Shown here piece by piece: positions 1,059 through 59,344 of a stretch of 64,000 nt of DNA. The notes beneath the pieces were generated by a model, which was given only the letters and a program-made list of their open reading frames with translations, did no database searches and was not told where the DNA came from. The position numbers were made by a program, and so were the translations under genes. Each line of letters begins with the position of its first letter. Position 1 is the first letter of the stretch. Origin of the DNA: Cyanidiococcus yangmingshanensis (Eukaryota; Rhodophyta; Bangiophyceae; Cyanidiales; Cyanidiaceae); the NCBI GenBank assembly GCA_013995675.1, contig VWRR01000001.1, positions 980,798 through 1,044,797 of the forward strand. Direction: 5' to 3'.

Positions 1059-2797
1059 ATGTCGAAAACAGCGTCGGAGGAGAGGCTTCCTTTTCTACTG
1101 CACCCACCGACCCAGGCTGATGTGCTGGAACTCGCCGAGTACGCCCAGAGTGCGGCAGTGCTTTACGGACTGGTTATGGCGGCGAGTGCTTCCTCGAGTT
1201 CTGGCTCAGGGCAAGCGCCGACCTGGACAGCAATGCCGGTGCCAATGACGCTTTTTCCAACCGTGGTACCTCGTTCGTGTTATCACCAGGCGCGAAGCTT
1301 GATGGTGCCTCTGCAACGCTGCATGGATAGCCTCGCTCGAGATACGCCGTTCCTGCTCCAGTGCCTTCGCGTGACCGCGACACAAGACCCTTTCACGGCG
1401 CGTTTATGCGAGCTTGCGCGACAGAACCCAATGGAGGATGATCGACCGGCCTTGGGTATCCTCCGAGCAGACTATTTCATCACAACAGACAGGAGGTTGC
1501 GTCTCGTAGAGATCAATACGATCGCAAGCTCCTTCGGTGCGCTGGGAAGCCACCTGCGCTCGCTTCACACCCACGTGTTGCACCGGGCCGACATTCTCGG
1601 ACTCTTCAGGGATTTGCCGCACAGGGCGCATTCGGATCTTCCAGGCCACATCGATGCTGCCGTGGCCCAGCTTGCCTCATGGCGACGTGCTCAGTGCGAA
1701 AATAACATGCCCGAGAACGGTGCTCTGGAGGGGATAGCAGAGGCCCTAGCGCACGCCCATCGATGGTGGCGAGCGCAACAGGAGTCGCAGTCGTTGGACG
1801 TTGACACGGCAGTCGTCCTTTTTGTCACGCAGCCAGGTGAACGCAACATTTATGATCAAAAATGGGTTGAATTCACACTCTGGAAGGAACATAGTATTCG
1901 GGTGCGGCGTGCAACGCTCTCACAAATTGCAGAACGTGGGCAACTTGTCACCACAGGCTCTGGAACACGTCCGGCATTGACGCTCGCGATGGGCGCTGCA
2001 GGTGATCCTCGGGCGGAATTCGTCTCTGTAGTCTACTATCGTGCTGGCTATATACCCCAGGATTACCCGAGCGACCAGTGAATGGGAGGCTCGAGCGATG
2101 ATCGCGCGCTCCAGTGCCAGTAGAATGCCCTACGGTTGCCTACCAACTGGTCGGCAGCAAGCGCATGCAGCAGATTCTCGGCGAACCGGGTGTCTTTGAG
2201 CGCTACCTGAGCGACTCGCCCGACTCGAAGTGGCACGCACAGGACGCTGCATCTACCCAGCTGGAGGAGCGTGCGCATTCCAAAGCCGAAGCCGTGCTTG
2301 AAACCTTCGTGGGGATGTACGCTTTCGATGATCCGAGCAATCGCGCGGCGATTGTGCAACGTGTTCTGGACCATCCCGATGAGTTTGTCCTCAAGCCTCA
2401 ACGCGAAGGAGGCGGGAACAATCTCTACGGTGCTGATATGGTCAAATGCATTGAGGCCTACTGGAACGCTCCAGAGATGGTTCCTCGTCGCCAGGACCCG
2501 GAGCATCCCCTCTGTGCCTACGTGCTGATGGATCGAATTCATCCAGCGTCGTCGGAAAATGTGATTCTGCGAAATGGGAACGCTCCAGTCCGGAGCGAAT
2601 GTGTCTCCGAGTTAGGTATTTTCGGAATCTTTTTCGGCAATGCTCGGCATCGTGGGAGCGCATCCACGAGCACGATCATCGATATCTTGAACCAGGCGGT
2701 TGGGCACTTGCTACGGACCAAAGCAGCGCGACAAGATGATGGCGGAGTGGCAGCAGGTGTTGCAGCACTCGACTCGCCCTGGCTCGACACCGTCTAA
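1059..2797 (+). CDS. Glutathione synthetase, split by two one-base frame changes
   Basis: This is the eukaryotic ATP-grasp glutathione synthetase, which joins gamma-glutamylcysteine and glycine using ATP in the cytosol or plastid. The N-terminal part (1059-2078) includes the substrate-domain block LRADYFITTD...LVEINTIASSFG. The C-terminal part (about 2120-2797) has the ATP-binding block FVLKPQREGGGNNLYG, then SELGIFG and the signature GHLLRTKA...DGGVAAGVA. The middle piece EWEARAMIARSSA lies in a third frame at 2080-2118. If one base is passed over at 2079 and one at 2119, the chain aligns residue for residue with the family, giving about 578 residues against the usual 470-500. The extra length comes from insertions in the N-terminal half. 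The start is ATG 1059; an upstream TTG at 1017 is in frame but less likely. Function is certain if the breaks are sequencing errors, otherwise the gene is damaged or recoded. Confidence 0.9.
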
Positions 2798-3287
2798 ATA
2801 CTGATAGGGGATGTCTCCAAGTACTACAAGTTTAGGCTGATCTCCTAAACTACAGCGGATTTACGCCCGACTTGGGCGTTCGGCCGAAACCGATCCCTGT
2901 CGTCTTTTCTGGTGATCCGGTTTGAATCAAGGATATCCGAGCGCCCCCTTTCCAGTCAGTATCTCGATTGAAACACTGGAGCGTCCAAGTCGTTCGCTGC
3001 GTGGGTCGAGGGTTTCCTGTCCCGGAAGGAGTCGCCTCTGGAGACTCTTGTAACGCTCCTAGCGTCCACGAACTCGAGGATGCTCTCATGAAGAGCATTG
3101 GCTACAGCTCGTTCGCGCTTCGATTCAACAGACAACCCCAAAGTGAACACTCAAGCGCGACCATGAAAAAAGCTCGGGCGTGCCTCGACAACGAGCACTG
3201 TCTCCAAAAAGAGACACTCGAGTGTCTCTTCGTCTATCAAGCGCCTGGCGACTGACGACTGCAGCGAATCAAGCCCCATCATCATTC
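2798..3287. other. Intergenic stretch, nothing recognised
   Basis: The interval between glutathione synthetase and PDCD5 has only short open stretches. The longest, 2968-3255 plus, lacks family resemblance and shows no sign of selection visible by eye. The two flanking genes converge here, so both 3' ends and their polyadenylation signals should lie in it. Confidence 0.4.
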
Positions 3288-3716
3288 TCAATCATCCTCA
3301 TCATCCGACCAAGTTCGACGTCTGGCAATGGTCACACGCGGTCTGACGTCCGAATCCGAGTGCAAGCGCTGAAGCAGGGCGATGAGCTGAGTTTCGGTAA
3401 CCCGCGTTCCTGGTGCCAGTTCGCCAAAGCGCACTGCACGCAACAGATAGTCCTCTACAGCCCTTGCCTTGTCCGGTCTAACAAGTGCCACTCTAGCCAG
3501 GCGTTCGCTCGCCTCGTCACTCAGAATCAGACGTAGCAAACTGCGTCTTCGCTCCGCCTCTGCTGCCTCTGCCGCTGCTCGTTCACCGGCCTCGTCGGTT
3601 GTTTGTCTCCCAGTCTTACCCGAGTCAAGCGTTGTACCAGCTTCCGGCGTCATCGCCTCAGAAAGCGATGTCTTCTTGGAACCATGGTCTAGCCATGGAA
3701 ATCCATTTGGCTGCAT
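3288..3716 (-). CDS. PDCD5 / TFAR19 family DNA-binding protein
   Basis: The 142-residue product matches the programmed cell death 5 family, small helical DNA-binding proteins conserved from archaea to humans. The core runs from about residue 60 with LLRLILSDEASERLARVALV, then RPDKARAVEDYLLRAVRFGE and the third helix ending in LIALLQRL. The family's acidic tail is present as SDDEDD at the very C terminus. PDCD5 members bind DNA and, in eukaryotes, the TRiC chaperonin. The N terminus before the core is longer than usual and rich in Ala, Glu and Arg. I chose ATG 3716; the frame also extends to a GTG at 3737. The gene is divergent from the AT-hook gene to its right. Confidence 0.85.
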   Translation of the reverse strand: MQPNGFPWLDHGSKKTSLSEAMTPEAGTTLDSGKTGRQTTDEAGERAAAEAAEAERRRSLLRLILSDEASERLARVALVRPDKARAVEDYLLRAVRFGELAPGTRVTETQLIALLQRLHSDSDVRPRVTIARRRTWSDDEDD

Positions 3717-4196
3717 CGAGACTGACAAAGTCTCCACTGGGTGAGGCGGTTGCGAGCGTGTTGCCGCCCTTTCTGGAACGCCAGGCGTTGTCCTCGCGGC
3801 GCACGTGCGCGGGTACAGGTTCTGTACGGCGCGCGTTCCCGTTGTGGACGCTCATGTTGGTTCTGTAACAACGACACGGGGAACGAGACACAGGAGTGCC
3901 GAACCTGCACGTGACCTTTCTCGTCCTGGTGAATATATTGTGTGGGTGTATAAACCAGTGTCCCTGAAATCGAAAACTTTTTTGTGGAACGGTGAGAACG
4001 GCTTTGGGAGTCGCTCTCCGAACTAGATTGACAAGGTTCGACGTCTGGCGGTAGCGCTTGTGGCCACGAGGCTTCGTTTTCACTAGGTAAGGCTTTCTAG
4101 ATCGACAGACACTCTTAAAGACTGTTCGAGAGGATTTGCGTGTTCTGAGCCAGTGTTTCTCAGCGCTCAGCGAGTGGGTTCGTTCTCGACGCGTTC
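3717..4196. promoter_or_regulatory. Divergent intergenic region, PDCD5 / AT-hook gene
   Basis: These 480 bases separate two genes that point away from each other, so both promoters should lie here. No convincing TATA box or repeated operator-like element was seen. The assignment rests on gene orientation only. Confidence 0.4.
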
Positions 4197-9360: not shown

Positions 9361-12286
9361 ATGGCGTCCTTTACCTCGAATGACGGAACCTGGCGGCTAT
9401 TGATTGAGTCGCTCGAACGCGAGCAAGCACCATGGAGTCGTTGGCGATCCTGCTTTCTGACGCTCTGCGCAGAGCGGCGCTGGAACGAAGCCATCCAACT
9501 CGTTCAGGCAATGAGTCTTCGGTGGCCTGAGGCAGCGGCGGTGCTTGAGGCTGCTCTTGGGGTGACGTTAGCTTCGGAGCGCGTGGACGCAGCCGGAACG
9601 GTGCTGGCCCGCGTGGAACGACTTGGTGTTGCGTTGCCACCTGTCTGGCAGGGACTTGTTCGTTTTGCTCAAGACGACTACAGAGGAGCACAGCAACTCT
9701 TTGAAGAGAGCGCGCGCTCGGTTTCGCCACAAACGAGCCCTGTAGTCGCGCTCTTGACCCGATTCGGTCTTGGTCGTGTGCTGCTCGAGCGCAGCGATAT
9801 CGAGCCACAGCTTGCGCAGCAAGCAGCAGCCTGGTATGCAGATGCCATCTGGATGTATGGCGAGGCATCGCCTGGTGACTGGTGGCGCTCCTACGGCTAC
9901 GCATTGGCAGCAGCTGGGAAGTGGGTTCTCGCAACGCAGGTCTTCAGCTGGCGCCTTGCACGAGAATGTGAGCGGATCGACCCTGACGATGCCGACTCTA
10001 GCGGTGCAGTCTACGCCCAACCGCATGTGGAGACATTGCTTGGACTTTGGGCCTGTTTACGGGCATTGCATGGCTCGTCAAAAGCATCTCCCGACCGGGA
10101 TGCTTGCTCGCGAGACGCGGATGCGGTGGCTCGGGAGCTGCTTCGCGAGGCGTTTGTACTGTATCCGCAGGACCGGCGGGTTCGAAATGCCATCTCCCTT
10201 GAGCAACGAGAATGGGCGAATCGCTATCTGGAGACAGAGCGACTAAACCGACTGGACGGGGTAACGCGCAAAGCCCAAGCGCGCTCGGAGTACATTCTCG
10301 GGAGATGGGAAGAGCGACGGGGCGACTGGATAGCAGCCGAGACGCACTATGGAACCAGCGTGCAGTACTGGGCGGATATGGCGCCAGCTCGTCTTGCGCT
10401 TGCTCATTCACTCTTGCGCCGAAAAGAGCTTCGCCAAGCGATGGAACAAGTCGACTACGTGCGCATCCAAGGATCGCGCATGCTCTCCAGCCAGCTTGAT
10501 GCTTATCTGCGGGCGCTCTCGGCGGTGATTATCCAGGAAGAAGCAGCGCCAGGGGCAAGCACTGGCGCATCTGCGGTCTCAAAAGCGAGCGAGCAAGCGC
10601 TGCGTCTGCTGCAGGGCACCGAACCGCAGCAGCTGCCGCCAGAAGCGCTGGCTGTATATGCCGAGCTGGTGGATCACCAAGATCCAGATTTTGCTCTTCG
10701 ACTCTATACGCTCTTGACGAAGCATTGGAAGGATCCAATGATTTGGAATAACATTGCCGCGCTGAACGCGCGTCGCTCCCGATACGAGGACGCCCACGCG
10801 GCGTTGCAGCAGGCGTTTCGGCTGCTCACCAGTGACCAGGACTTGTCCATGGGGTGCTGGATGCCGGGTCCATCTTTTCTTCGAGACAGCCCGTCGCATC
10901 TCACTTTTGCATACAATCTCGGTCGTTTGCTGGAGAGTATGGGAGATGTGACCCGAGCCGAGGAAATCTACCGTTACGTTCACGAGCAGTTCCCGTCGTA
11001 TGGGGATGCGACGCTTCGTTTAGGCGTCTTGGCCGAGCAATACGCCAAGGACTCGAGCGTTGCGGAAACCTACTACCGTCAGGCAGTGCCGAATCCGCGA
11101 GCGGTAACAGCGCTTGCCTTTTTAGCTCAGGCGCGTGGCCAAGTCGAGGAGGCACAACAATGGTTCGAGTACTTTATTCGCCGAAAGAAGCTGCACAAGT
11201 CCCTGGATACGCAATATGAGGCGCGGAGCTATTGCGATATGATTACGGCTGCGTATTACATCACCTTGGCGCGTGCGACCGCTCGACACCATCAGCATCG
11301 TCGCCACAAGTTTCTCGTCGCGGCGGGTAATTTGCTGCTTGGCGTCCTCGAGAGGTCACGCGACAACGTCGCGGCAATGCTGCTGCTAGGGGTCTATTTC
11401 CGTGAATTGAACTTGCTCACGGAAGCAGAAGAGGCTCTCTCTGCAGTCGTTCAGCTGGGGCCCGTTGCCTGCTGCCGAGCCGTCCATTGTCGAGTGTGCG
11501 CGAGCGAATCTCATCGCAGTGCACCTGTTACGCGGAGCATCAGCGCCGACCTCGTTACGTAACGTTGTTCGGCTCGTGGAGGAGCATCTTCTGTTGGTGC
11601 CGAATGAGAACGCTGCTCTGGTGGCCCTGGCGGCAGCGCATTTCGGCCTCGCTCAATATCGAGCCAGTATGGATGTGCTACAGCGCGTGATCCGCCTCCA
11701 GCCGACAGCGCTATCGATATGGTTCGACTTTGGTCTCGCACTCGCGCGCGAGGCGCGCTCCCGTCTCGATCGACTCGACTACGTGGCCGATCTACAGGCC
11801 GGCACCCTCCTCCTCGAAAGCGCTGGAGGGTGCTTCCACGCGCTCGAGTCGAGCCTCCGAAACATGCAGCGGTCGGTATCCGAGGACCGCTATCGGCAAT
11901 GGCAGACTGCGTTGGCTGGTCCGACCAATCGGGTTGTTTCAGCGGACGCTGCGCGCGTCAACGGCGCCTGGTGCTTCCGCTGCTTGCCCGAAGCTCGTGA
12001 ACGTCTCGCCTATGCAACCGAACGCACGCATCGCAAACGCGAGGAACTGCGTCAACAGCAGCAGCTTCGCGAGGCTGCAGCTGCGCGTCAAGCGGAGGCA
12101 AACCGTCAGCGCCGTGAAGCCCAGCAGCGCGAGGCGGCCGAGCTCGAAAAACTCGCTCGCGAACAACAGCTCGAGTTCCTCCGTCGACAGGAAGAGTGGG
12201 AGGCTCAACGTGGAAAAAGCCGCCGCAAGTCTCATGTCATGGTCGACCTCGACGAGGATCTAGGCGAGAATCGCGAGACGACTTGA
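9361..12286 (+). CDS. CTR9-like TPR subunit of the Paf1 complex, one frame change
   Basis: CTR9 is the large tetratricopeptide scaffold of the nuclear Paf1 complex, which travels with RNA polymerase II and supports histone modification. The first reading frame (9361 to about 11463) carries successive TPR-like helix pairs, for example NNIAALNARRSRYEDAHAAL and YNLGRLLESMGDVTRAEEIY. The second (from about 11465) continues with more TPRs, such as LVALAAAHFGLAQYRASMDV. It ends in a long charged coiled coil rich in Arg, Glu and Gln and an acidic tail, the usual CTR9 ending. Together they make about 974 residues, normal for CTR9. The frame changes by one extra base within the run ggggcccgttg near 11456-11466. 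ATG 9361 is the first Met. CTR9 is favoured over other TPR proteins (for example anaphase-promoting subunits) by the coiled-coil tail. Confidence 0.78.
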
Positions 12287-24208: not shown

Positions 24209-26456
24209 TCATGTGGTTGCTGGTGTCGCCAAGGTCTCCTGAAGAGCACTCCAGGTCTCTTCATCCAGATAGCAACGGATATGTTGGATGCTCTCGCGAA
24301 AACGCTCCCGCGACTGGGCATAGATTCCGCGAGACACACAAGTCGCAAGCAGCAGTGCCGGTTGCTGTACACCCAAGACCGAACGCATCAGTTCACTCGC
24401 GGCAATCTGTTCGGCGAGATACAGCGGCCAGTGAGTCAGCAAGTAGTTTGTCATTGCCGCAGCGTTGGCTTCGTCGACCGGTTTTTTATCGGTGAGCGTC
24501 CACCAGAACAATCGATCATTCCATGCGTGGGCGTCGGTGGCAAACCACCCAAGCGCTAGGGCCAGAACCAGAACCACCCACGGCCAAAGAACTGCTGAGG
24601 AATGGGGTGTTCCAGCCCCCCTCAAGGCTGGTTGCACCGAGTGCCTCGAGAGCCTGCAGAATAGGTCGCTTGTCCGTTGCGCGAGCTCGCTCGAGCACGT
24701 CTTGCAGCCACTTGGGTACTCGTTCATCATCCTGGGACGGTGCGTGCTCCACAGGGCGATTCCATCGAGCAAAGTGGCCGGAAAACCACTGGCTATGACT
24801 CCCGAACGATGTCGTGGCCTTACGCCATGCCAAGGCCTGTCCTGAAAGGCTACGAAGGTAGGGCGTGTCGATGAGCGGCAACCAGTCATGATGATGGACA
24901 TGTGCTGTCGCGTCGTCGAGCTTGTTAGCGGATCGACGCTGCCGAGGCGGAGCGTGTCGCGCTATCAACATCTCTGCTGCCTGTCGTTCATCAGGCTCTC
25001 TAGTCTCCGTGATCGGTGTTCCATCTCGTTGCTCAGTCGTTTCACCCTCGTGCCAGGTGCCTTGAACCGTGTTTGCTGTTTTTAATCCAGTTTTCTGCCC
25101 TGGATGATGCGATACGTCGCACGTCGGTGAAGACAATTGCATTGTCGAAGCCGGTTGCAATACCGAATGCGCCAAAGACGACGCCCCCATCGGTTGGATC
25201 TCGCATGACTCGGCTCGGTTGGATCCGCATGTCATCGAGGGAGCATTTCTCGGCGACATGAAAAGATCATTCATCGAGCAATGCTGCGATGCTCCGTCTG
25301 CCAGCATCTTCGAATGTCTATTGGTGGCGGTACTCGGCTCTGTCTCGAAGGAGATTTGCTTGGGCGAGCTGGACGGCGGACCCGTCACCAGAAGGCATGC
25401 TACAGCCAAGGCGCTCTCCTCAGCGTCGCTGTGCTCAAAGTCACCGATGGCATCCAACGCTTTTCGTAAGGAGCCTTCAGACTGTGATGTCAGCGCCATG
25501 GCGTACTCGAAACGCGACGAGTCTGAGACGCCATGTTTCGTCAACAAGGTCGCCCGAGATAGAGGCTCCAGACCAGCCAATGCACACGCCTGAGCACCAT
25601 GAAGAGCAAAAGACAGAGGCCAACCAGCAATGAACTCCATCAAATACATCGAACGATCTGAAGCAAGCGGCTTTTCGCGAGAATTCAACAACAGCACTGC
25701 TTCCGGTACATTGGCCAGTACAAGCGCCTCCCGCTTCGGGGCATACACCGCGTCTACAAAGCCGCCGGCGAAAAGGTCTGCTGCAACCAACCAAGGCAGC
25801 GCACGACTCGTGCGAGTCCCTTCCAATGAATCCAAAAAGGTAAGATGAGCACCCTTCCAGTCGTGGCTCTGTAGCGTCTGCTGCAGTTGCCACCAGACCG
25901 CAGCCGGATACACGATTCTCTCCATCTTGGCCATTCGCCGTTTGCCAGCGAGTAGTGCTGCTCGATCGCCCGTTGTTGTTCCAGTTTGTAAAAGGCGCCA
26001 AGCTCGCTCGAGAGTTCGCCGCTGTTTCGCCTCCAGCTCTCGATAACGCGGCGATCGGGCACCCCAGTGCACCATCTCGGCCGATGGGAATATGAAAACC
26101 AGTTGAATGCACGCTCGTGAAATGGCCTCCGTTCCAGCGTTCCCCAGCGTGAAAGCCAGGAGCCATTGTTCCAGGTCAGCGATCGCACGTGCCTGCAGGC
26201 TCGGTGTCAGGAAGCCGTACGCGTTCAAAAGCGCACAGTCGTCAATCACTTGCCAGGATGTCCGATTCCCAGGGCGTTGCGACATTGCGTCAGCTAATGG
26301 CTGAGCGACGAGAGCGTGTTGGAGCCAAGCTTCTAGATCCCACGCGATTCGCAGCGTTGAGCAGCCAGCCTGCGGCCAAAGGCTTGTGCACGGTGCACTG
26401 TGACAGTACCCGAGGCGTTCGCAAGCCTCGCGAAAGCCGTACACCTGTAGCCACAT
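24209..26456 (-). CDS. Unknown protein with C-terminal membrane segment, one frame change
   Basis: The upstream frame runs from ATG 26456 for about 620 residues: a helical N-terminal half rich in Leu, Ala and Trp (for example QQTLQSHDWKGAHLTFLDSL), then a long Ser/Thr/His-rich region from about residue 370. The reading should shift by one extra base near 24575-24600. The next frame gives LWPWVVLVLALALGWF, a clear transmembrane helix, then a soluble tail of about 100 residues ending at 24209. Total is about 748 residues. Without the shift the upstream frame reads on only to 24516 with a Ser/Gly tail. The helical half could be a repeat scaffold, but no family was recognised. The shift has the same sign as those in the conserved genes. 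Confidence 0.6.
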
Positions 26457-27514
26457 ACTCAAGATCGTCCTTTATGCAATAAAGTTCACGCACGAACACC
26501 GACCTGCTGCCCCAGTTCCCAACAACAGTAACGTTTTTCCTAGAGAAACGATAATGCGTAGGCAAGCGGCAGTGGCGGTCGAACAGGTACGACGGCGCAT
26601 ATGATCGCCCTTGCAGCTGCCACGAAATGACCCCTATACTGCCCTTTTTGCTTCTGACTCGAGGTCTCTTCGCCAGAAAAGTACGCACTCGTTGCTTTAG
26701 GGTTGTTTGGGAACCTTTCGTCACCTTCGAGATCATGGACAATTGCAAAATTCCCGATTTGAGATCTTTCCAAATGGCACCAGATTCCCAATGCCTTGGT
26801 GTGCCCCGCTTCTTCGATTCCAGTCTATTGCACGATCAAGTCTGAAGCATCGAATATCCGAATGAATAGCGAGCGACGACGTTTACCTCCTTTACACAAC
26901 ATTCTTGGTCGTGGACGTAGCACGAGTCCAATCTCCGTATACCACAGCTCGCTGAACGAGATCCAGACATCGACGAGCCTTGTCAAAGCGTCGTTTTGTA
27001 TGTGAATGGTTCTGCGAATCAATCACTCCTCATGCCTGCTCCATGCAAAGCAACATGTTGTGGCGAAAATGCTTACCGAATCTCTGTAGCAGTCTGTCTG
27101 CGGACCAGGATCAAGCCAAGAACAGACGCTTCATTCAAGCTGTTCCCATGGTTTTGAACCATGGAACACGACAAAGGATCCGCAATGACCATAGAGGATT
27201 TAAGAAATCGATATTTCGTCATTAGAGGATCATTTCCGACAAGAGGTTGCGATCGCGTGCGGAGCACGCACCGTCGTCGATGCACCGGACTGCTTCTCGA
27301 TCGCGTGCGGATCACACACCGTCGTCGATGCACCGGACTGCATCTCGATCGCGTGCTGGTTTGCACGATCTCGCCCTTCTCAACCGCTTTTTCTCTTTCA
27401 TGAATGCGACTCCCTATCTTCAAGGTTTCGAACGAGTCCACGGAAAGCGCCGCTTCATAGATTCATGAAATCTTTCTCTTAAAAGCTTACTGACACAGTG
27501 CATGTCTGTCAAGT
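26457..27514. promoter_or_regulatory. Divergent intergenic region with a 48-bp repeat
   Basis: About one kilobase lies between outward-pointing genes, so both promoters are expected here. No protein with recognisable features was found. It contains the 48-bp tandem repeat described separately, 150-260 bases upstream of the lipase-like gene. Confidence 0.4.
27251..27357. repeat. 48-bp tandem repeat, 2.2 copies
   Basis: Copies start at 27251, 27299 and 27347 (partial), each with gatcgcgtgc. The full copies differ at four positions. Although 48 is a multiple of three, no frame through it connects to a recognisable protein. It lies in the upstream region of the lipase-like gene. Confidence 0.9.
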
Positions 27515-30410
27515 ATGGCGGGCTCAGAGGTTTCCTTTACTGTAAGTGAGCGGGTGTCTGCTGGCGACGCGCGACGGAGCCGTCTAGGTGCTCGAGTCGG
27601 CACCGGAAGACGTCTTAGTCGCTTGACGAGTTTTTTCGCGACTCCACAAATCCGCAGCAACCCCAAAGAAGCCAAGTTTTTGCTGGAGACGCTTTCATCG
27701 GAGCAGATTACTTGGCAAATTTTGAATCTCGTCGGAGCGATCGTTTTTTCGTTAGCGTATACGCTGACTTTGAGCTTTGTTGCGCGTAGGGATGCAGCAG
27801 CGGTTCCAGCGCTCAACCTGATCGATCGCGTTGTTGTGTTCGGCTTTTGTGCGCTTCAGCTGACTTTCAGCGTCCTCTATCTGGTTCGTCTGTATCGGTA
27901 TGGTTGGATTCGCTGCACCATGGAGATGCGTTCCTGTTTCCTGCAGGGTTACTTTCATGTTCATCACCATGAACCTGGTTGGGAATGTAGCGCGCACAGT
28001 CTCCGAGACGAGCTCTACCACCATCGCGATCCTCTATGTGTCGAGTCTAATTTGGCAGTGGTTCTGGATATTTGGGTTCTACTGGCATGCCATGGCGATT
28101 TTGCGACTGTATCGCAACATCAAGGATCGATGGAGTTTCCTGCAGCGTAATCGAATGGTACTAAGCATGTGTTTTCTGATTGCAGCACTTCAAACAGCGT
28201 TTTGCGGCTGGTCTCGAACAGCGCTCGGACTGACCTGGCCATCGATGCTGGCCCAGTACATAGAGCGTCAACAATACCAGGACATCGCTTATTCGATCAC
28301 CTTTGGATTGGTCGTTGCACTGAGATTGTTTCTGGATGGGTGGATTGCCTTCGAGCTGTATCTGACGTTCCGCGTCCTGCTCGATTTGCCGTACACCTGC
28401 TGTCATCACAAGCAAATGGCTGCACGGTTTTTCCGCGTGATAACGGCGATTTCATATATCTTCTTGGTTGCGAATGATACGCTGTCAGGGAGTCTCGTTC
28501 CCCTGCCCACAAAGGACGCCTCTATAGGCGGGGTGCAGATTCACTTGCTTGGGGTCGCGCGCTTCACCGGCGGCACGCTTGCGATGCTCTTTATCTGGTC
28601 GATTCTGTTGCTCTATACGCACTTGCCGCCTACCGTTTCGGGCATCTGGAGTCCGTGGATTGCGGCATTAGTTCCAGACCCCGCAGCATACCAACGAAAA
28701 CGAGCTGAAGCTGCCCGTCTGCGATCTAGACGCGGGCACTCCAGTCTCAGTACAAGTCCTGGCGGGCCTTGGACACGGTCGCAAGTCGACGATGAGCAAG
28801 AACTTCCCAAAACAAACCTGTACTACAAAACTGAAGCCGAAGCGATCACTGGTGGTGATCACTGGCTCTCGCGCTCGCTGGTGCTCGAGACCCACATCCT
28901 GCTTTTCAATTTGGCGTACTTGTCGTATCGACCATGGCGTGATCCGCAGAAGTACGCTGAAATCTTTGATCGCTACGGGGTCGGAGAGAAGTATCCGCTT
29001 CAGGCTCGCGTCGTGCGACGTGTATCCAGTTCGATCATGGACGTCCATGTGCTCATCATCGAGCTTGCTGACCGGATTGTCGTGAGTTTTCGTGGTACCA
29101 AAAGCACACGTAACCTGCGTACGGATATCAACTTTCGACGAGTTCGCCTGGATTTGCACCTGCACGCTCAAGAGTGCCCCAATGTAGCGGACGCGTGGCG
29201 TAGGAGCGTTTGCAGCAAGCACTGGATGCGCCGAGTCATTCGCAAGGCACCGAAGCTGGTCGCAGTACGACGCCGAATCACACCGCGACAAGAGATACCT
29301 CTGAAAATGGTGTCGAATCGTCTTCATGCTCCTCATCTGCAGCGCGGGAGACTCATAAAGCTGATCGTCGAGCTGCAGAGAATTCCGCCAAGTCGGTTGA
29401 TCCCGATTTGGAACAAGGCGCTGGAGCCGCCGAGTCAGCCCGATCTCTGGGGCGCACTTACGGCTGGTGGTGGCGCCTCCGGACCATGAGCCCCTGGAGA
29501 TTCGGAGGTATCCGTGCCCAGGCTGGAGAGAATTTCTCATGGTTCATCGGTCGACGCGTCCCAATGAAGGTGCACGATGGTTTTGCGCACGCTTACTTGT
29601 CGGTGCGTGAGGAGCTTGTGGACGCCCTGGTGCCGCTTATTGCGAAGCCTGTACTGCTGCCCTTTGTGGATGAACTTGAGGAACCCAACCTCTCTGGTAC
29701 TTGGTCCGACGTATACGGAAACGACGCTCAAGATGGACCTCAGTGGTCGCAGTACGCGCTGGAACATGCGAGTCCGTCGGAACGACGGAGCGATGCCAGT
29801 GGCGATCCGTTCGAGGCTGAGCCATCGACTTGGAGATCTTTACAGCGTTCGGCATCTGGATCAAGCGACCATGAGGGAAGGGCATCGACAGCATCGAACT
29901 TGCCGCTGCGAGCGCACAAACCGGTGATATTCTGCGGTCATTCTCTTGGCGCGGCGCTTGCAACCATTGCGGCACTAGACTTGACTACGTTTCAGAACCC
30001 ACAATCTCTGCATCTATCCTCTGATCGAGTCATGTGCGTTACCTTCGGATCACCACGAGTTGGTAATCGCTCGTTCAGTAGGACGTTCCGTCGTATGGTT
30101 CCGTTCTCCTTCCGTTGGGCCGCAGGTCGGCGATATCGTTACCAAGGTGCCTTTTTGGGGTTACGAGCACGTTCCGGTCAAGGTTATGATCGATCCGTTG
30201 ACGGGTAGCATTCTCATGGATCCCTCTATTATGGAGGAGTTTGTGGTGGCCTTTCGCAATTCTGTGGACGCCCATCTGCGAAATGCGTACACCCAGGGCC
30301 TGCAAAAGTGGTGCAGCCGATATCATCCTGGATGGGACGTGCATTTCTGGGACTTTCATGACGTCCCGGATGAGCATGCCATGGGCGCGACGCTTGAGAG
30401 CGTTATGTGA
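27515..30410 (+). CDS. Multi-pass membrane lipase of the class 3 / diacylglycerol lipase type, several frame changes
   Basis: The N-terminal half holds about seven or eight transmembrane helices (27690-28620), for example LNLVGAIVFSLAYTLTLSF and GGTLAMLFIWSILLLY. The C-terminal half is a class 3 lipase. It has IVVSFRGTKSTRNLRTDINF (oxyanion strand), VHDGFAHAYLSV, the nucleophile elbow FCGHSLGAALA with its Ser, VTFGSPRVGN, and DIVTKVP...YEHVP with the late Asp and His. Membrane helices followed by a lipase-3 domain is the layout of sn-1 diacylglycerol lipases, which release 2-monoacylglycerol. The frame changes near 27952 (one extra base), near 29200 (one missing or two extra) and near 30135 (one extra, just before DIVTKVP). 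An Ala/Ser-rich loop at 29210-29450 interrupts the lipase domain. About 960 residues in all. ATG 27515 is used. Family confident; precise substrate inferred. Confidence 0.8.
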
Positions 30411-32544: not shown

Positions 32545-32784
32545 GATCGCTGCAGGGGCGCAAAGCCGGTCCGAACCGCAGCTGTTGTGCGAGTGCAGAG
32601 CGCCACCAAAAAGCTGCAGATCAACTTGATGATCTCAGCAGAAAAATGTTTACCAAAATGAACAGAAAATTAGAGCCGACGAACCGCGAAGCACGTCACC
32701 ACGAATACAGACTTGGTTGAAAAGATACTCAAGTCGCGCTTGGGGCGTCACCAGCAGCGAGCCGTCCTGCGGCGCTGCCGAACG

Positions 32785-44570: not shown

Positions 44571-45566
44571 TTAACGCCAGTCTCTTTTCAAGCGGGCAGC
44601 ACGGTCCCAGTCGTAGCCGTCGTCAAGATGCACCGGTACTGCGTCACCACGAAGCGAGGCCTCGTCGCTATGCACAAGCGTGCCACCACCGCCACAGCGC
44701 GGACAGCGCTCCCGCCCAGTACCTCGGCAACGGGTGCAGTTCGCCTTGACTGCTGATACCCGAACTCTGCCTTTCGAGAAGAGGCCCTGCGCTGCGCCAC
44801 GCGCGACGACTGTAGTGGACTGCTTCCTCTTGGTTGAGCTGTCGCTGGTGCTGGGCAGACTCCAGCGCTGACAGAGACACTCGATGGTGCCTTCACCCTC
44901 ACAGGCTGGACAGTTTGTTTGCGCATCCCTTGGTTCTGTTCCACGAGTTATTCTCAGCCACGCTTTTCGCAAGCTTGCTGGCGGCTGCTGCGCCAAGTGC
45001 GACACCGCAAGACCGGCGAGTGCCCCCAGCGCCCATACCAACGGTGTAGACGGATTGAGTCCGTTCGGATCACCAACAGCGTGCGCACCTGGGCCACCAA
45101 ACCAAGCAAGCACTGTTGTTGGCACACCCGTTCCAATCACAAGACTTATGTGATGTCCAGCTGCAGCTTGAGATGCAGTCACAGCACCGACGCTGCCACC
45201 CAGAACAGCGCTTATCACGGAGCGCTGCCGACGCCGCCTCGCTACTGCAACATCGATTCTGGGTGCGGAAGGCCACGGTTTTCCAAACTGCCTCCCTGTT
45301 TCCTGAATACTACGACAATGCACACATTGCTGATGCCATGTTTGATACAAACTACCTACAAAACCAGAGTCTACTCGCTTCAGCGGGGGTCGTTGTCCGA
45401 CCATGAGTGCGCGGGTGAACTGCGTATGGAACCCGAACGACCTCTCCGCTGTCTCGACGAGACCGACGGGTGTCCGTTGCACCTTGCGAGATGCGCGCGA
45501 ACTTCTGAATGAGAACAAGAATGAACAATGTTGGACGAACCTGAAGCGAGATGCGTCGGCCACCAT
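44571..45566 (-). CDS. DnaJ-type zinc-finger membrane protein, probably plastid
   Basis: From ATG 45566 the product is 331 residues. The N-terminal 100 are Arg, Ser and Phe-rich with few acids, consistent with a transit peptide. Two hydrophobic segments follow at about residues 115-200 (SAVLGGSVGAVTASQAAAG and LVWALGALAGLAVSHLA). The C-terminal third has the Cys pairs of DnaJ zinc fingers: CPACEGEGTIECLC, then CTRCRGTGRERCPRCGGGG. There is no J domain, so this belongs to the DnaJ-like zinc-finger proteins such as plant BSD2, LQY1 and ORANGE, which act in plastid protein folding or photosystem repair. Membrane segments followed by zinc fingers recall ORANGE and LQY1. Which subgroup it belongs to is not resolved. 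Intact. Confidence 0.75.
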   Translation of the reverse strand: MVADASRFRFVQHCSFLFSFRSSRASRKVQRTPVGLVETAERSFGFHTQFTRALMVGQRPPLKRVDSGFVGSLYQTWHQQCVHCRSIQETGRQFGKPWPSAPRIDVAVARRRRQRSVISAVLGGSVGAVTASQAAAGHHISLVIGTGVPTTVLAWFGGPGAHAVGDPNGLNPSTPLVWALGALAGLAVSHLAQQPPASLRKAWLRITRGTEPRDAQTNCPACEGEGTIECLCQRWSLPSTSDSSTKRKQSTTVVARGAAQGLFSKGRVRVSAVKANCTRCRGTGRERCPRCGGGGTLVHSDEASLRGDAVPVHLDDGYDWDRAARLKRDWR

Positions 45567-45754
45567 CACCGAGCGTCCGTGATCCCTCCTGGTGAACGTC
45601 GACGGCGGGCGGCGTCACGCTTCGTGTGGATGCGTGTGCTCGATCGCCGCTGGGCCGCTGGCGACGTGTCCCACAGGGCGATCGATGCCGTGGGCCCGCA
45701 CAGATGTGCCTGGAGGCCATCTGTTTCCCGTCGATACCCGACTCTTGTGTCTCT

Positions 45755-46411
45755 TTACGTACGAGCGGATGTCGCGCCTCGCGTTCCGCCTCTATGTATC
45801 TCACGAACAATCCAATCGATTCCTTCACGGATTCCCTCGCCGGTGATCGCTGAACAGCCGACGATATGCCAACATCGGCATGGAATTTCGTCTAGCCCGA
45901 GTTCTTGGTGAAGTTCCTCGCTCTGCATTGCCTCTGGTAGATCTTGCTTCGTGGCAAAGATTAATAGAGGTGCTTGGTGAAGCTTCACGGCAGAACGATA
46001 GAAACGCCGTAGCTCGCGGCGGTTCACGTCCAGGAGCCGGCGATCAGCTGCATCGACGACGTAGATGACGCCCTGGATCCCATCCTGATACATTGGCCAT
46101 AGTGGACGGAGCTTGTCCGTGCCGCCTAGGTCATGGAAGAGGATTTCGTCTGAGCCCCAATGGATTGTCTCTTCTACAGAACCTAAGGTTGGTACAGTGA
46201 TGATGAACTTTTGGAGTTTCAGCCGATAAAGAAGGGTTGTGGCACCAGCGCCGTCGAGACCTAGCAGTAGCAGTTCGATCCGTTGACCAGAGCGGTATGC
46301 GTTGATTTTTCCGCTAGCCCCACTACTTCCATTTTTTCTGACACCACCGCCACTGTTTCCGCCGCCGCCGACGCCGTCGCGCTCTGAGGGTTTGCCAAAA
46401 CAAGCGCCCAT
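45755..46411 (-). CDS. Arf-like GTPase-fold protein with degenerate nucleotide site
   Basis: The 218-residue product begins MGACFGK with Gly2 and Cys4, a likely site for N-myristoylation and palmitoylation, then a Gly/Ser linker of about 30 residues. The Arf core follows from residue 44. The P-loop reads GLDGAGATT (51-59), with Ala57 where Arf proteins have the invariant Lys. Switch I keeps PTLG (74-77). Switch II reads DLGGTD (94-99), with Thr98 in place of the catalytic Gln. The guanine-binding motif reads TKQD (154-157) rather than NKQD, and CSAITGEG matches the last G motif. About 180 residues is typical for Arf; the extra part is the linker. Loss of both Lys and Gln predicts little or no GTP hydrolysis and weak nucleotide binding. 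Membrane-bound scaffold role inferred. Confidence 0.85.
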   Translation of the reverse strand: MGACFGKPSERDGVGGGGNSGGGVRKNGSSGASGKINAYRSGQRIELLLLGLDGAGATTLLYRLKLQKFIITVPTLGSVEETIHWGSDEILFHDLGGTDKLRPLWPMYQDGIQGVIYVVDAADRRLLDVNRRELRRFYRSAVKLHQAPLLIFATKQDLPEAMQSEELHQELGLDEIPCRCWHIVGCSAITGEGIREGIDWIVREIHRGGTRGATSART

Positions 46412-47370: not shown

Positions 47371-47582
47371 TATACTCTTACATGGGAGGTGATGAGTCGA
47401 TCGGGCAGCATAAAGATACATGAATGGCCTTTGAGCGCCGAAAACAGCGACTCGGTCCACAGAGTAGGACGCACGTGTTAGTTTTATTGGTCACGGTCCC
47501 GTGGATCGAATCGTTCGCCATGATGGGCAAATTTAGCACACAACGCTTTTCGAGAATCTCTCTCGATCGAAAAATCATCATT

Positions 47583-51550: not shown

Positions 51551-53951
51551 ATGACGTCCACAAACTGCTCCGTGGATGCTGGCATAAGGTATGTTTTGGA
51601 TCTCAAAGAAGTCAAAAACACTGACCGAGGTACTGTTGGAGGGAAGAACGCTAGCCTGGGAGAGATTCTGAGTCTTGGCCTCAGGGCACCGTCAGGTTTT
51701 GCAGTGACCGTTGCTGCGTACGACGCGCTTTTGGAATTCAATAACCTGAAGCCACAGATTCAGTCCATTATCGATGATATGAGGAGTGAGTCCTCGGACT
51801 CGCTTGAATGTGCTGCGACGCAGATATGGGAGCTGTTTGAGGGCGCGCGCTATCCCCCGCCAGTAGAACGAGCGATTCGAAGCGCCTACAGTACCCTGGC
51901 GAGTGCGCTGCAGACGCCTGAGCCGTTCGTTGCTGTGCGCAGCAGTGCGACCGCAGAAGACTCTGCAGAGGCCAGTTTTGCTGGTCAGCAGGAGACGTAC
52001 CTGTGCGTGCATGGAGTCGAGTCCGTTCTGCTGTACATTAAGAAATGCTACGCCTCGTTGTTTTCGCCGCGAGCAACAGCCTATCGTGAAGAGAAAGGCT
52101 ACGCGCATCTGGAGATGCGTCTGAGTGTCGGTGTCATGCAAATGATTCAGAGTCTCGTTTCAGGTGTTTGCTTCACCCTGGATCCGGTCAATGGCAAGCG
52201 TGATGTCATTGTCACAGAGTGTTGCTGGGGTCTCGGCGAGATGGTTGTTCAGGGCAAAGTCCAGCCTGATCGCTATGTGGTTGAGAAGGCAACAGGGCGA
52301 GTGCTCGAACGTCATGTTGCAGCCAAGCCAATGATGATGGTGCGCGCTGGCCTCGCTGATGGCATTCAGAGTGGCGCTGCAGCAGCGGTTGATGCGCTGA
52401 CGCGCGAGGTCCCAGTGCCAGCCGAGCGGATCCAAGCGCCTTGCCTATCTGATGAGCAGTTACAGGAGCTGGTTCGTATGGCGATCGATATCGAGAAGCA
52501 TTACACAATCCCTATGGACATTGAGTGGGCGATTGACGAAGAGACGCACCAGCTCTACGTACTCCAGGCGCGCCCCGAAACGGTGTGGTCTAGTCGCAAG
52601 GCGGCTTCTCGCCGTGAAGTGCTCGTGCGCGGCCTTGGTGCATCGCCTGGGCGTGCATATGGAAAAGTGCGAGTCCTTATTGATGTCCAGGAAATTGCAG
52701 AATTTCAGCTTGGCGAGGTCCTGGTGACCACCATGACCACTCCGGACTGGGTTCCGGCCATGAGGCGAGCTGCAGCAATCGTAACCGACAGCGGTGGCAT
52801 GACTGCTCACGCTGCTATTGTCTCGCGGGAACTCGGCCTGCCTTGTGTGGTCGGTACAGGCAAGGCGACCGAGATCCTTCGCAGTGGACAGACAGGTGAC
52901 TGTCGATGGAACGCTGGGTGTGGTGCTACGTGGCATCCACGCCACCGAAGACGAAGCGGAGCACGAGACGCTATCGTCGCGGGACGGCCTCACTGGGGCC
53001 CCTGTGCCCATCACGGCCACTCGTGTGTACATGAACCTGGGAGAACCGGAAAAGATTCAAGAGCTGAGGCGGTTGCCCTTCGACGGTATTGGACTAATGC
53101 GTGTCGAATTTATTCTAGCGAGCTGGGTCGGCCATCATCCCATGTACATTATTGAGAACAAGGAGGAAGATATGCTTGTTGAGAAGCTTGCGGAGGGTAT
53201 TTCTATGGTGGCCCAGGCAGCATATCCAAGACCGGTTATTGTTCGTTTCAGTGATTTCAAAACCAATGAGTACCGCTCTCTGAAAGGAGGCGAACGTTTC
53301 GAGATTGCCGAATCAAACCCGATGCTTGGTTGGCGCGGGGTCTCTCGATACGTCAGCGCCGAGTACGAGGGCGGGTTTCGTCTCGAATGCCGGGCAATGA
53401 AACAAGCACGAGAGGAGCTTGGCATGAAGAACATCTGGGCTATGTTGCCGTTTGCCAGGACCACCTGGGAGGTGCGGCGTGCCCTCGCGTTGATGCGCTC
53501 CGAAGGCCTGGAGCGCGGTCCAGACTTCAAGGTGCTGCTGATGGCAGAAGTTCCCAGTGTAGTGCTACTGGCGAGTGAATTCGCTCAACTATGTGATGGC
53601 TTCAGCATTGGCAGCAACGATCTGACGCAGTTGTTGTTGGGCGCCGACCGCGACTCTCCCAAGCTGGCAACGCTTGGTTATTTTGACGAGCGCGACCCCG
53701 CAGTGAAAATAGCTATGCGGATGCTCATTGAGGAAGCGCATCGTGCCAACATCACCGTGAGCATTTGCGGACAGGCACCTTCAGTTTATCCGGACCTGAC
53801 TGAGTTTCTTGTGCGCTGTGGCATTGATAGCGTGAGTGTGAATCCGGACGCAGTCGTGAGTACCCGGAAACTCATCGCTAGTGTCGAGCAGAAGATTATG
53901 TTGGAGAATGCGCGCAAGGCACTGGAAAGCAGTCGATTGGCAGGATTCTAG
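51551..53951 (+). CDS. ppsA: Phosphoenolpyruvate synthase (pyruvate, water dikinase), one frame change
   Basis: PEP synthase makes PEP, AMP and phosphate from pyruvate and ATP. From ATG 51551 the N-terminal ATP-grasp part shows [31 protein letters not shown] and the [20 protein letters not shown] segment. The swivelling domain has [20 protein letters not shown] with the phosphorylated His at residue 420 (E. coli PpsA His421). The frame then changes by one extra base near 52890-52896, inside the conserved G-Q-x-V-T-V-D-G loop. The PEP/pyruvate barrel follows with [27 protein letters not shown] and the Cys of SICGQAPS. About 799 residues, normal for PpsA. It resembles bacterial and archaeal PpsA rather than plant pyruvate phosphate dikinase, so ancient transfer is possible. 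Function would be gluconeogenic or glycolytic PEP supply. No clear transit peptide. Confidence 0.9.
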
Positions 53952-55138: not shown

Positions 55139-55715
55139 TTAACAGTGAAAAAAACATGTCAGCGGTCCCAAGGACTCTCGCAGGCCGGTATCACTGTTCC
55201 ACAGCGAGTTTAGCAATGCGCTTTTCAATCGACGCCACGAGTATCTGTCTTCTGTGTCAGGACGCTCGTGGCAACCTTGCATGGAGGGTTCATCGCGCTC
55301 CCTAAACGCTTCCATTTTCAGGCCAGAATCGCTGATGCGCACGAGTCCATGTGCATCGCAGGCAACAAGAGGCGAGCCCGTCACGCTCACCGCATGGGTG
55401 CAGTACTTTGCATGATTTCCGTCAGAGACTCTGTCTACTCTCTGCTGTAGCAACCGCATGGTTCTCTTGAAAGCAGCAACCAAAAAAAACCAAAGCGGCG
55501 GATCTGCCCAACAACAATTCAATGTCCTTGATTCGCTCGGGCGTCCTCGAGGCCGAGTTTCCCGCTCGGAACGTCCACAACTCGACAACGGTCGCACGCA
55601 ACGTTCTCTTGCTCTGACTTGTCGCCAACAGCGCAGCTGCCAGCGAAACCGTCAAGTTCGCACATCTGGAGAAACTTCTTCCTTCATTTCGCAGCAATAT
55701 ACTGGTTTGACTCAC
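55139..55715 (-). CDS. Possible small protein with one frame change, unknown
   Basis: On the minus strand an N-terminal piece, from about 55715 (LTVSLAAALLATSQSKRTLR, then RTPERIKDIELLLGRSAAL), leads into a second piece ending at 55139 (KRTMRLLQQRVDRVSDGN, HAVSVTGSPLVACDAHGLVR, RRLKSALLNSLW). The pieces overlap around 55480-55500, where one extra base would join them, the same sign as in the conserved split genes. The product would be about 190 residues, with helices and a central strand-rich part. I do not recognise the family. Confidence 0.4.
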
Positions 55716-57881
55716 CTCCTAGGCGTCAACAACACCGCTGCTCCATGGTTACCTCAGTGATTCGACTTATGCGACGCAAACGCCAAGACCCAGCATGTTG
55801 AACGCCGGGAAAGCTTCTGCCACCAATCAAGGACCGCGTCCATATCTTTCAGAAGGGCTGCGCTTCAGCATATGAACCTGAAAAAGCATCATGCCCAGCG
55901 TCTCGTACACAAAGCCGGGTCTCGACAAGATCGCTTCACGAGCAAACATGCGTCTACACGAGCCTACTTGCGCTGTTATTCAAACCGTTTTGGAGAATTC
56001 GTACAAGTATCCTTTTCCTTGTCGTGAGCCGTCATGTAAGCCAGCTCGTGTGACTGGCACGGTCCGTGTCGACGACCCGGAGTGGCTGCCAGCCATCAGT
56101 GCGTGGCGGTGGTGCTCGCACCCTTTCGTGTCGTCGGCCAAGGATATCCCGCCAGCGTGATCGCTCGGGCGTTACGTGGCGGCGGCTCAGGCGCTGCTCT
56201 CGGCGGGTGCGCCCGCCGCCGCGCCACCGTCGGTCGTCGTGGTCAGAGCAGCCCGTCGATCTCGGGCGCCGCAGGACGCGATGGCGCCCGTTCGGGTGGC
56301 GCGTTTCCTACGTAAAAATCTGCTGTTCTTTCGTCCGCGCGTTCGTCTTGCAGGCAGCTCTGTTCTCTTGATACCAAAGAAATACTTCGTAGTAGCATTT
56401 CCTGATGTCCTGAGAAGCCGCGTCCGTCTCCAACTGATATTACAGCGAAGCGCACGGGTTTGATGTGCATATCGACGCGCGAGCTGCCGCCTGTTGAGGG
56501 CGAGTTTCCCGAGGGCGCCTCCCGGATAGCCATCTGTTGTCTCAAGTTCACGACAAAGGGAGACGAGCGCGCGTTCATCAAGTATCCCTATACGCTAGAT
56601 AATGGTTGTATTTGCTGTTGTGATTGTTGTGCAGCATAAGTTTCGAGCTGCAAGACGGACCGTGCCGACTGAAGGGCTTGCGAGGGCGGGTTGAGGGGAG
56701 GCCGCTTTTTGACGGGCCCCAGGCGATGGCGTTTGTTGCTTTCTGAGACGGACAACAAGGGCCCTCTGGGGACTCGGCGGAGCTCCAGCTGTCTCTGAAC
56801 TCGATCATGTCGTTGTGTTTCCGGAGGCGCTACGTGGGCGGCGTGACCAGGGTTCACGGATCGAACTGGAGATACTGACTGACAAGAACACACGGCGGGT
56901 TCGTCGCTGGGACTTGTCGGCATAGAGCGGTGTGGTTTCTCTCACGATTGGACGGTTTTGTGGAGACCGTGTCAGTCCGTTATCCTGAAAGGTTTCTTGG
57001 ATACCTCATGAAGGATATCTTTCGCAAACTAACGGAAAGAAGGATCATCCGAACGTAAATCATTGATAGATATATATAGAGCATGTCGATTCGTACTTGA
57101 GCAATATACAGTTTGTGTCCTGAACAAGGGCGGCAGTAGCGCGACGGCTGCAGTCTGCCATTCACGCAGGCACAAGCTGAAAGTCCCCGATCAGCGTTAT
57201 TCTGCTACATTGTCGCGCACTCTGTCGCAATGAAACGGAAAGTGCCTGCCGAAATATCTCCGGCTTCTCCAGTCGTGCCTCTGTGACAGCGTCCAGTCGC
57301 AGGCGTTTTGGCTCCTTTCTTCGGTCCGAAACCATTTTCCTGCCTCCTTTTTGGATGTAAACACAGAGTTCTCAGCCAAAAAAGCTTTTCGGGGAGTTTC
57401 GAGCGTCCACAGACGTTCAGCGCGACTCGCGAGCTCCTCGCTATCTCAGGACTCTAGACCGTCTGTTCGCTGGAGAGACAAACGCTGCTCCGTGCGACAT
57501 CCTTAAAGGAGCCGTACACAGACACATTTGAGTAGTGTTCAGATGATCATGTTCTCAAGTGTTTTCGCAAAAACGTGAAGATCGTCCGAAACGCTTCGCG
57601 GTATGACCAGCCTGGGTTCCCGGAGAGACACGTACAGCTATCGATCCTCTCATGTTCGTACGAGGCACCGAGGCGCCGTCATTCGCGCAGCGCTGCGAAC
57701 GTTCGTTTCCCGCTCTTGTGACGCAAAACTTCTCGACAAACAGGTAACTTGCACAAGACGTGGCAATAACGGAACGAAAATCACCCTCTGGCGACTCGTA
57801 TGTGATATGTATAACAGACGCTGAGCCTGCAGGTATGCGATACGCTCACTGGAGAACAACCGAGCTAGCTCGTTAGCGTCC
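55716..57881. other. Two-kilobase gap, no confident gene
   Basis: Short open stretches occur on both strands, the longest about 110 codons, without recognisable features. 56160-56290 is GC-rich with Ala/Arg codon runs. 57060-57080 contains a short tata repeat. The promoter of the DHHC gene should be at the right end. Confidence 0.35.
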
Positions 57882-59344
57882 ATGTTTTGCGAGTTTGTGC
57901 CTCCGAAGCGACGTTTGTTCGCGGTGGCTGTGCTTGCCACTGCGGTCCCCCAAATCATTTTCTTAGCCGGTGTGGCTCCATACTTTTGTACTGTGGAGTC
58001 TCCTCGAGGATGGAGTGTACTTGCGGTGGGACTTTTCATAATTGGAGCTGCTTGGGCTTGCTACCTGGTTGCGGCCCTGTCTGATCCTGGCTGGGTTCCC
58101 TATCAAGCGGAACATGAAAAATGCCTCCTTTACCGGGAGGCTTCGAGTGGACTGCCGCTTGGTCTTCGAGTGCGTGATCCCAGATCAGGAGAGGAACTCA
58201 TCCTGAAGTATTGCGAGACCTGTCGAGTTTTCCGTCCACCGCGCAGCAAAGCATTGCTGGGTGTGCCAGCGCTGTTGTGTCCGGATGGATCATCATTGCG
58301 TATGGCTGGGCCAGTGCGTGGGCGCCCAGAATCATCGATTTTTTCTGGGTTATCTAGTTTTTATTCTTCTAACACTTATATATGGTGTTGTTGTTTGCTT
58401 TCTTCAAATTGGTCTCGAAACCGAGCGACTCGGTGGCGGCAAAGCCGGCTTCCGTGCAGCGTTGGTGAATCGCCCACATCCAGCTATTTTGGCACTTGTC
58501 GTCGGTGTGTATTGCCTTCTAGGTTGGGGCATTTATTAGTGCGCTTTACCTGGTTCAGCTGTTTTTTGCGTGCACAGGAAGGACCACAGCGGAGGCGTGT
58601 GGTCGTCATCCGATAAAGCGAGGGTCGCGCATCGGCCCCGCTGGGCTCGTCGAAGTGCTTTGCGTGGCGCCCGAAACGGAGCTCGGAGCGAAGAAAGAGC
58701 CTTCCGGTACTGAGATCAAGCGAGTTTGGCAGTATGAGATCATTGGCGTGGAACGTTCAGAGCATGCAGTGCACAGTGCTGTTACAGGGAGTGTCGCGAT
58801 CCTCAACAACGTTTATGACGTTCGCTGGTCAGCGTTCGAAAAGCTGCGTAGCATATCTGTAGTGCCTGAACCGGTCGCGAATGAGTCGACAGCGTTATCG
58901 TCAGAAAAAACGAATGAAGCGTCCGCATTTGTTCACTTTTTTGACCGGCACGAGCTCATGCTGATACGCCGGTGGATTATGGGAGGCATGACGGAGCCAA
59001 CCTTGGAGCGACACCCGTATGAGGATCAACAGGATGTTGAATGCGAAAGGCATGGCCGAGACTTGCTGCGATCACTCGTTAACGGCGAACGAACTGTCGC
59101 TTCAGAGCGAGATGTAGACGTGATTCGGGAGATGCTTGCTATTTGGCGACGACGTTTGCACTACCGAAACGCGTTGCTGGAGAGCAAGCATACGACTGAT
59201 GAGGACGGCACTCTCCAGCAAAAGGAAGACCTCGAGCCCAACGGTAGCCATTTGGACTTGGCAGGCAGGAGAACTCGACAGGAGCGCATTATCTGCACAT
59301 GCTGCAACGGCCGCGTAACGATGACCGATTCATGTGGCGCCTAG
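57882..59344 (+). CDS. DHHC-type protein S-acyltransferase, two frame changes
   Basis: DHHC enzymes attach palmitate to cysteines of membrane proteins in the ER, Golgi or plasma membrane. The N-terminal frame holds two transmembrane segments ([37 protein letters not shown]), SDPGWVP, and the start of the Cys-rich domain, [15 protein letters not shown]. After one extra base near 58250 the next frame continues [20 protein letters not shown] with the catalytic DHHC, then [13 protein letters not shown] and two further membrane segments. A second extra base near 58533, in a run of four G, leads to [20 protein letters not shown] with the conserved TTxE motif. A charged cytosolic tail of about 240 residues follows, ending in CTCCNGRV. 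Total about 486 residues. The enzyme would need both changes bypassed to be made. Start is ATG 57882. Confidence 0.88.

What the first reader, a model, noticed from the sequence alone, without database searches (positions are those of the whole stretch)
1059..59344. Recurrent one-base frame changes of the same sign in unrelated conserved genes
Seen: glutathione synthetase (near 2079 and 2119), CTR9 (near 11464), the unknown membrane protein (near 24590), the lipase (near 27952, 29200, 30135), PEP synthase (near 52893) and the DHHC enzyme (near 58250 and 58533) each continue in another frame with the expected next residues. Nine of these ten steps are one extra base; if signs were random, nine or more of ten the same way as predicted would have chance 11/1024. 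Several are not in homopolymers. Insertion-type consensus error is the leading explanation; decay or +1 ribosomal frameshifting are alternatives. The intact long genes show it is not universal.
Basis: partly seen in the sequence, partly recalled or inferred. Interest (0 to 1): 0.7.

Follow-up and report, generated by a model that had tools for sequence, protein, structure and literature searches.

The report
Extra-base errors in an algal assembly
The repeated one-base frame changes are real in this sequence file, but they look like spurious extra bases left in an uncorrected long-read draft of a red-alga genome, not a new way of reading genes.

Summary
Confirmed as an observation, ordinary as an explanation. 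The window ends contig C1 of a 12.07-Mb, 20-contig genome whose size and telomere repeat fit the red alga Cyanidiococcus yangmingshanensis (inferred). The bias is genome-wide: in 20 further 10-kb pieces, one per contig, 22 of 26 switches have the extra-base sign, and simulated changes show the detector is sign-neutral. Switches occur at 0.27 per kb of coding DNA, without excess clustering, in genes that include CCT-alpha, TrpB and MnmG. No shared motif, homopolymer excess or stop-codon link was found. Of three histone H3 copies on one contig, two coding sequences are identical and the third equals them but for one extra base; it has another extra base upstream of its start codon. Published Illumina-corrected assemblies of this species report ordinary gene sets (92.4% complete BUSCOs, 36 introns in one), which does not fit 30% broken genes. 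Best reading: residual insertion errors in an unpolished draft. Recoding, decay and RNA editing are very unlikely. Reads could not be mapped here.

The parts
1054..2794 (+). Glutathione synthetase (eukaryotic type) in three frames; junctions within about 2064-2082 and 2102-2121, both extra-base sign
   Evidence: HMM; TIGR01986; PF03917, PF03199
9381..12280 (+).
   Evidence: segment scores 132.5 and 55.3; interval; TPR repeats in the first frame
24215..26451 (-). Protein of unknown family in two frames; junction about 24573, extra-base sign
   Evidence: no Pfam match for either piece
27494..30407 (+). Class-3 lipase with hydrophobic N-terminal part; junctions about 27952 (plausible only), 29203 (the one opposite-sign step) and 30111
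   Evidence: Lipase_3 PF01764 positions 64-124 of 140 in the frame between 29203 and 30111
51644..53926 (+). Phosphoenolpyruvate synthase in two frames; junction within 52887-52894, extra-base sign
   Evidence: (PRK06464 5-447 then 445-797)
57825..59344 (+). DHHC palmitoyltransferase in three frames; junctions about 58251 and 58521-58540, extra-base sign; missed by the HMM
   Evidence: sequence read by eye; PF01529 E 1.4e-20, from profile position 21
44605..46288 (-). Arf-family GTPase and downstream coding; two HMM switches here are judged doubtful and not counted as confirmed
   Evidence: middle segment score 6.1; Arf complete in one frame

Best explanation
The one-base steps are residual insertion errors in the consensus of a long-read draft assembly of a Cyanidiococcus red alga that was not corrected with accurate short reads. 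Shown: the same-sign bias holds over the genome, without excess clustering and without a shared motif, homopolymer excess or stop-codon link, and one extra base lies upstream of the start codon of a duplicated gene. Inferred: that the bases are absent from the cell's DNA, that the cause is an insertion tendency of single-pass long reads, the species, and that this file is an earlier or less finished draft than the published corrected ones.
For: Sample of 20 x 10 kb: 26 switches in 95.6 kb coding (0.27 per kb), 22 of extra-base sign, 21 of 69 coding chains broken, dispersion chi-square 17.5 on 19 degrees of freedom. Sign-neutral detector. Profiles were tried at 10 of the 26 sample sites; 8 are supported: CCT-alpha 2-249, 252-301, 299-446, 446-521 (three sites); TrpB 1-87, 86-215, 212-384 (two); ABC-F PRK11819 9-108, 113-303, 309-536 (two); MnmG 1-101 then a best stretch from 166 (one). 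Histone H3 on C20: two coding sequences are identical over 411 bases and the third equals them but for one extra base; aligned with one of them over 653 columns the third has 2 extra bases, one of them upstream of the ATG, no missing base and 2 substitutions. No k-mer stands out (best p 0.004 in 2720 tests); runs of 4 or more near 6 of 30 sites, background 16.5%. Of 20 contig ends fetched plus the window's own end, 8 of 21 carry five or more telomeric units, whereas the published corrected assembly of strain 8.1.23 F7 has 19 pairs plus one single end, 92.4% complete BUSCOs and 36 introns after Bowtie2/Pilon correction; a second corrected strain has 20 of 20 telomere-to-telomere contigs and 35 introns.
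Against: Errors in long reads are described as predominantly homopolymer-linked indels (passages of PMC12007338); these show no homopolymer excess, though that paper also reports insertions not tied to homopolymers. DNA around 16 tRNA matches (49.3 kb, 11.3 kb called coding, 13 chains; one of the 16 loci overlaps a training piece) gave 0 switches where about 3 were expected. Two of 10 profile-tried sample sites got no clear support: L006, where the first piece matched no family and the CysRS profile lies wholly in the second frame, and L010. H3: against the third copy L066 both other copies also show one extra base in the diverged outer flank, with 5 mismatches, so not every flank difference need be error. 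The near-identical part of the C8 and C16 subtelomeres (about 5.95 kb) has only 2 one-base indels and 3 substitutions, which fits the rate but is weak. No reads, RNA or second assembly were compared; which strain and which deposited assembly G000 is was not shown.
Confidence: 0.94

Rival explanations
1. The extra bases are real in DNA and mRNA, and ribosomes of this alga shift +1 at them, as in Euplotes.
For: Same-sign bias in conserved genes; essential products must be made.
Against: First-frame stop follows within 6 nt at 2 of 30 sites against 7.9% by chance, median 67.5 nt against 53; AAA-TAR at 1 of 30; no shared k-mer; an extra base also lies upstream of the start codon of an H3 copy; an opposite-sign step in CCT-alpha with profile support; published gene sets of the species have ordinary ORFs.
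Confidence: 0.02
2. The genes are decaying pseudogenes or this clone is a hypermutated line.
For: Frame breaks are in 21 of 69 coding chains of the sample.
Against: CCT-alpha, TrpB and MnmG are hit, with profile agreement otherwise intact; the broken H3 coding copy differs from two others by nothing but the extra base.
Confidence: 0.01
3. Deletional RNA editing removes the extra bases from transcripts.
For: None seen beyond the same-sign bias.
Against: Needs the bases to be real in DNA, which the published corrected assemblies argue against; no shared site feature.
Confidence: 0.005
4. The steps are introns or separate genes mis-joined.
For: Two of my own HMM switches in the window (45884, 45372) look like this, and L006 may.
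Against: Profile coordinates overlap or abut within a few residues at PEP synthase, CCT-alpha and TrpB, so there is no room for an intron; published assemblies of the species have 35-36 introns in all.
Confidence: 0.015

Closest known systems
Gene-fragmenting indel errors in long-read draft assemblies (PMC12007338; passages including part of the abstract seen)
   Same: Scattered one-base indels break many unrelated genes; corrected with accurate reads or references.
   Different: Here the sign is mainly extra base and homopolymers are not enriched.
Widespread +1 programmed ribosomal frameshifting in Euplotes (PMC4759687; outline with abstract and section 5 seen)
   Same: Many genes need a +1 step.
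   Different: Euplotes steps occur mostly at AAA-TAR stop sites, in 11.4% of genes; here no stop or slippery motif was found, both signs occur, and an upstream flank is also hit.
Corrective frameshifting of indels in mitochondria (PMC5009743; passages seen)
   Same: Indels in genes that must work.
   Different: Those are organelle cases; this is nuclear DNA with sites over the whole genome.

Membership tests
Residual long-read consensus error | Unrelated and indispensable genes are hit without regard to function | tested here: met
   (profile support at 8 of 10 sample sites tried, out of 26)
Residual long-read consensus error | Chance-like scatter along the genome | tested here: met
   chi-square 17.5 on 19 degrees of freedom over 20 pieces, few events per piece; DNA around tRNA matches 0 against about 3 expected
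Residual long-read consensus error | Also present outside coding sequence | tested here: met
   one extra base upstream of the ATG of one H3 copy; 2 one-base indels in about 5.95 kb of near-identical subtelomeres, coding content not examined; few events
Residual long-read consensus error | Absent from accurate reads or a corrected assembly of the same strain | not testable with these tools
   indirect only: published BUSCO and intron counts; strain of G000 not shown
Residual long-read consensus error | Homopolymer association (common, not defining) | tested here: not met
   runs of 4 or more near 6 of 30 sites, background 16.5%; runs of 3 or more 16 of 30, background 58%
Euplotes-type +1 programmed frameshifting | First frame ends in AAA-TAR or a similar stop at the shift | tested here: not met
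   AAA-TAR 1 of 30; stop within 6 nt 2 of 30, chance 7.9%
Euplotes-type +1 programmed frameshifting | UGA reassigned | not tested
   first-frame stops at the sites are TGA in 21 of 30, which does not settle it
Pseudogene decay | Dispensable genes with relaxed sequence | tested here: not met

The most novel reading that the evidence does not exclude
A red alga whose nuclear genes carry thousands of extra bases that are skipped in translation or removed from mRNA without any shared signal.
Probability: 0.02. Interest if true: 0.95.

Novelty: not a real feature. Interest (0 to 1): 0.07.

Why it matters
As biology it does not. As a warning it does: 21 of 69 coding chains in a 20-piece sample of this assembly are broken, so gene models, pseudogene calls and protein sets drawn from it would be wrong, and a corrected assembly should be used.

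Tried and rejected
Slippery-site or motif search around 30 extra-base switches (8 in the window, the 2 doubtful ones included, and 22 in the sample): nothing beyond chance. Stop-codon link: none. Ribosomal RNA as a non-coding test: the Rfam searches for SSU and LSU gave no usable answer; the two rDNA loci found through 5.8S and fetched hold long runs of N and divergent spacers, so they were not used. tRNA matches (16) as a non-coding test: too few; their surroundings were used as mostly held-out DNA. Independent relatives: none confirmed for the CTR9-like piece in genome contigs or for the second glutathione synthetase piece in viral contigs. Two HMM switches in the window (45884, 45372) were dropped from the confirmed list but stay in the motif and stop tests. 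Of the 4 opposite-sign switches in the sample only the one in CCT-alpha was tried with profiles, and it is supported; the other 3 were not tried; all 4 are kept in the count. A literature search for ribosomal frameshift with red alga listed 10 of 20 papers, judged from the listing alone, and one for PacBio insertion errors found none; I claim nothing from either. Confidence was lowered from 0.95 to 0.94 because the strain of G000 is not shown.

Full report
What the window is. The window is C1:980798-1044797, the 3' end of a 1,044,797-base contig, in a genome of 12,072,675 bases in 20 contigs. Its GC is 0.554; 20 other 10-kb pieces range from 0.476 to 0.570, mean about 0.534. Arrays of AATGGGGGG stand at several contig ends. 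These fit Cyanidiococcus yangmingshanensis, listed for two strains with 12.0 and 12.1 Mb, 54.6% GC, 20 contigs and telomere AATGGGGGG (PMC13353863, passages); Cyanidioschyzon shares the telomere but has 16.5 Mb. Species is inferred and the strain is not shown; no name was given. Of 20 contig ends fetched (400 bases each) plus the window's own end, 8 of 21 carry five or more telomeric units and two more carry one to three. The published corrected assembly of strain 8.1.23 F7 has 19 telomere pairs and one single end (PMC9812998, passages), and that of NIES-4659 Ha1 has 20 of 20 telomere-to-telomere contigs. So this file is probably a less finished draft. PMC9812998 says that drafts of two strains of the species existed before and cites a 2020 genome paper as its reference 21 (passages), which I did not see.

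The observation. A 3-periodic order-4 Markov model with frame-shift transitions, trained on the window and the 20 pieces, gave nine same-strand frame switches in the window, eight of the extra-base sign. Two (45884, 45372) are additional and doubtful, since the Arf domain is complete in one frame. The DHHC pair is missed by the model but supported by the sequence and, for the first, by PF01529 starting right after the junction. 27952 is plausible only. The PEP synthase profile runs on without loss across its step.

Is the sign bias real? In 20 pieces of 10 kb, one from each contig, there are 26 switches, 22 of the extra-base sign (two-sided p 0.0005). Planting single-base changes in 30 intact chains, three times each, showed equal sensitivity to both signs, 73 of 90 and 74 of 90, all with the right sign; 2 switches appeared in the unmodified templates. 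The rate is 0.27 per kb of coding DNA, 21 of 69 chains are broken, and counts per piece show no excess scatter, chi-square 17.5 on 19 degrees of freedom. DNA around 16 tRNA matches, not used in training except where one locus overlaps L006, gave none in 11.3 kb coding where about 3 were expected.

Which genes. Profiles were tried at 10 of the 26 sample sites. CCT-alpha is spread over four frames (TIGR02340 2-249, 252-301, 299-446, 446-521), with two extra-base steps and one opposite step. TrpB takes three frames (TIGR00263 1-87, 86-215, 212-384) and an ABC-F protein three (PRK11819 9-108, 113-303, 309-536). MnmG takes two (TIGR00136 1-101, then a best stretch from 166; a second stretch is not shown). 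Not supported: L006, where the CysRS profile lies wholly in the second frame. L010 is partial: a 60S acidic ribosomal protein matches Pfam in one frame with two stretches, while its middle seems to lie in another frame by eye. Genes such as CCT-alpha cannot be decaying (general knowledge).

Mechanism tests. Near 30 extra-base switches no k-mer stands out in 2720 tests and homopolymers are not enriched. The first frame's next stop lies a median 67.5 nt on, against 53 expected, and within 6 nt at 2 of 30 against 7.9%. AAA-TAR occurs once in 30. Euplotes genes, by contrast, mostly shift at AAA-TAR, and 11.4% need it (PMC4759687, section 5). A histone-family search gave 14 matches, among them three H3 copies on C20, one of them in two overlapping pieces; a further H3-like match on C5 was not compared (the name H3 is recalled from the protein). 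Two coding sequences are identical over 411 bases and the third equals them but for one extra base. Aligned with one of the others over 653 columns, the third has a second extra base, upstream of the ATG, no missing base and two substitutions; against the remaining copy L066 both others show one more extra base and further mismatches in the outer, diverged flank. An extra base outside the coding sequence is expected of error and not of translational recoding. The C8 and C16 subtelomeres align over 7513 columns with 99 mismatches and 11 gaps; within the near-identical part of about 5.95 kb there are 3 substitutions and 2 one-base indels, compatible with the rate but weak.

Outside evidence. The authors of the corrected 8.1.23 F7 assembly used PacBio Sequel reads, HGAP4 and repeated Bowtie2/Pilon correction with Illumina reads (PMC9812998, passages), and modelled genes with Augustus, exonerate and manual inspection (section 24). 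They report 4,832 proteins, 36 introns and 92.4% complete BUSCOs. NIES-4659 Ha1, also Pilon-corrected, has 4,884 genes and 35 introns (PMC13353863, passages). A genome with about 30% of coding chains broken would hardly give that, so the corrected assemblies very likely lack these bases. This is inference; the sequences were not compared.

Verdict. With the detector's sensitivity of about 0.81 the true rate would be near 0.33 per kb, some thousands of extra bases in the genome (extrapolation). Interest as biology is low.

Noticed in passing
window 62574-64000: The contig end is a repeat with matches on 19 of 20 contigs, nearly all near contig ends and mostly at 79-95% identity (61 matches listed, itself included); no telomeric array at this end; subtelomeric in character.
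   Followed up: partly
L010:2341-2772 (minus): A 60S acidic ribosomal protein has its start and acidic end in one frame and, by eye, its middle in another, which would need two compensating steps in a very short gene.
   Followed up: partly
G000:C20:297577-327453: A cluster of histone-family matches in inverted pairs, with a third H3 copy between them that carries the extra bases.
   Followed up: partly
L062, L063: The two ribosomal RNA units have divergent spacers (about 95% identity over the best 2.1-kb alignment); long stretches are N.
   Followed up: no
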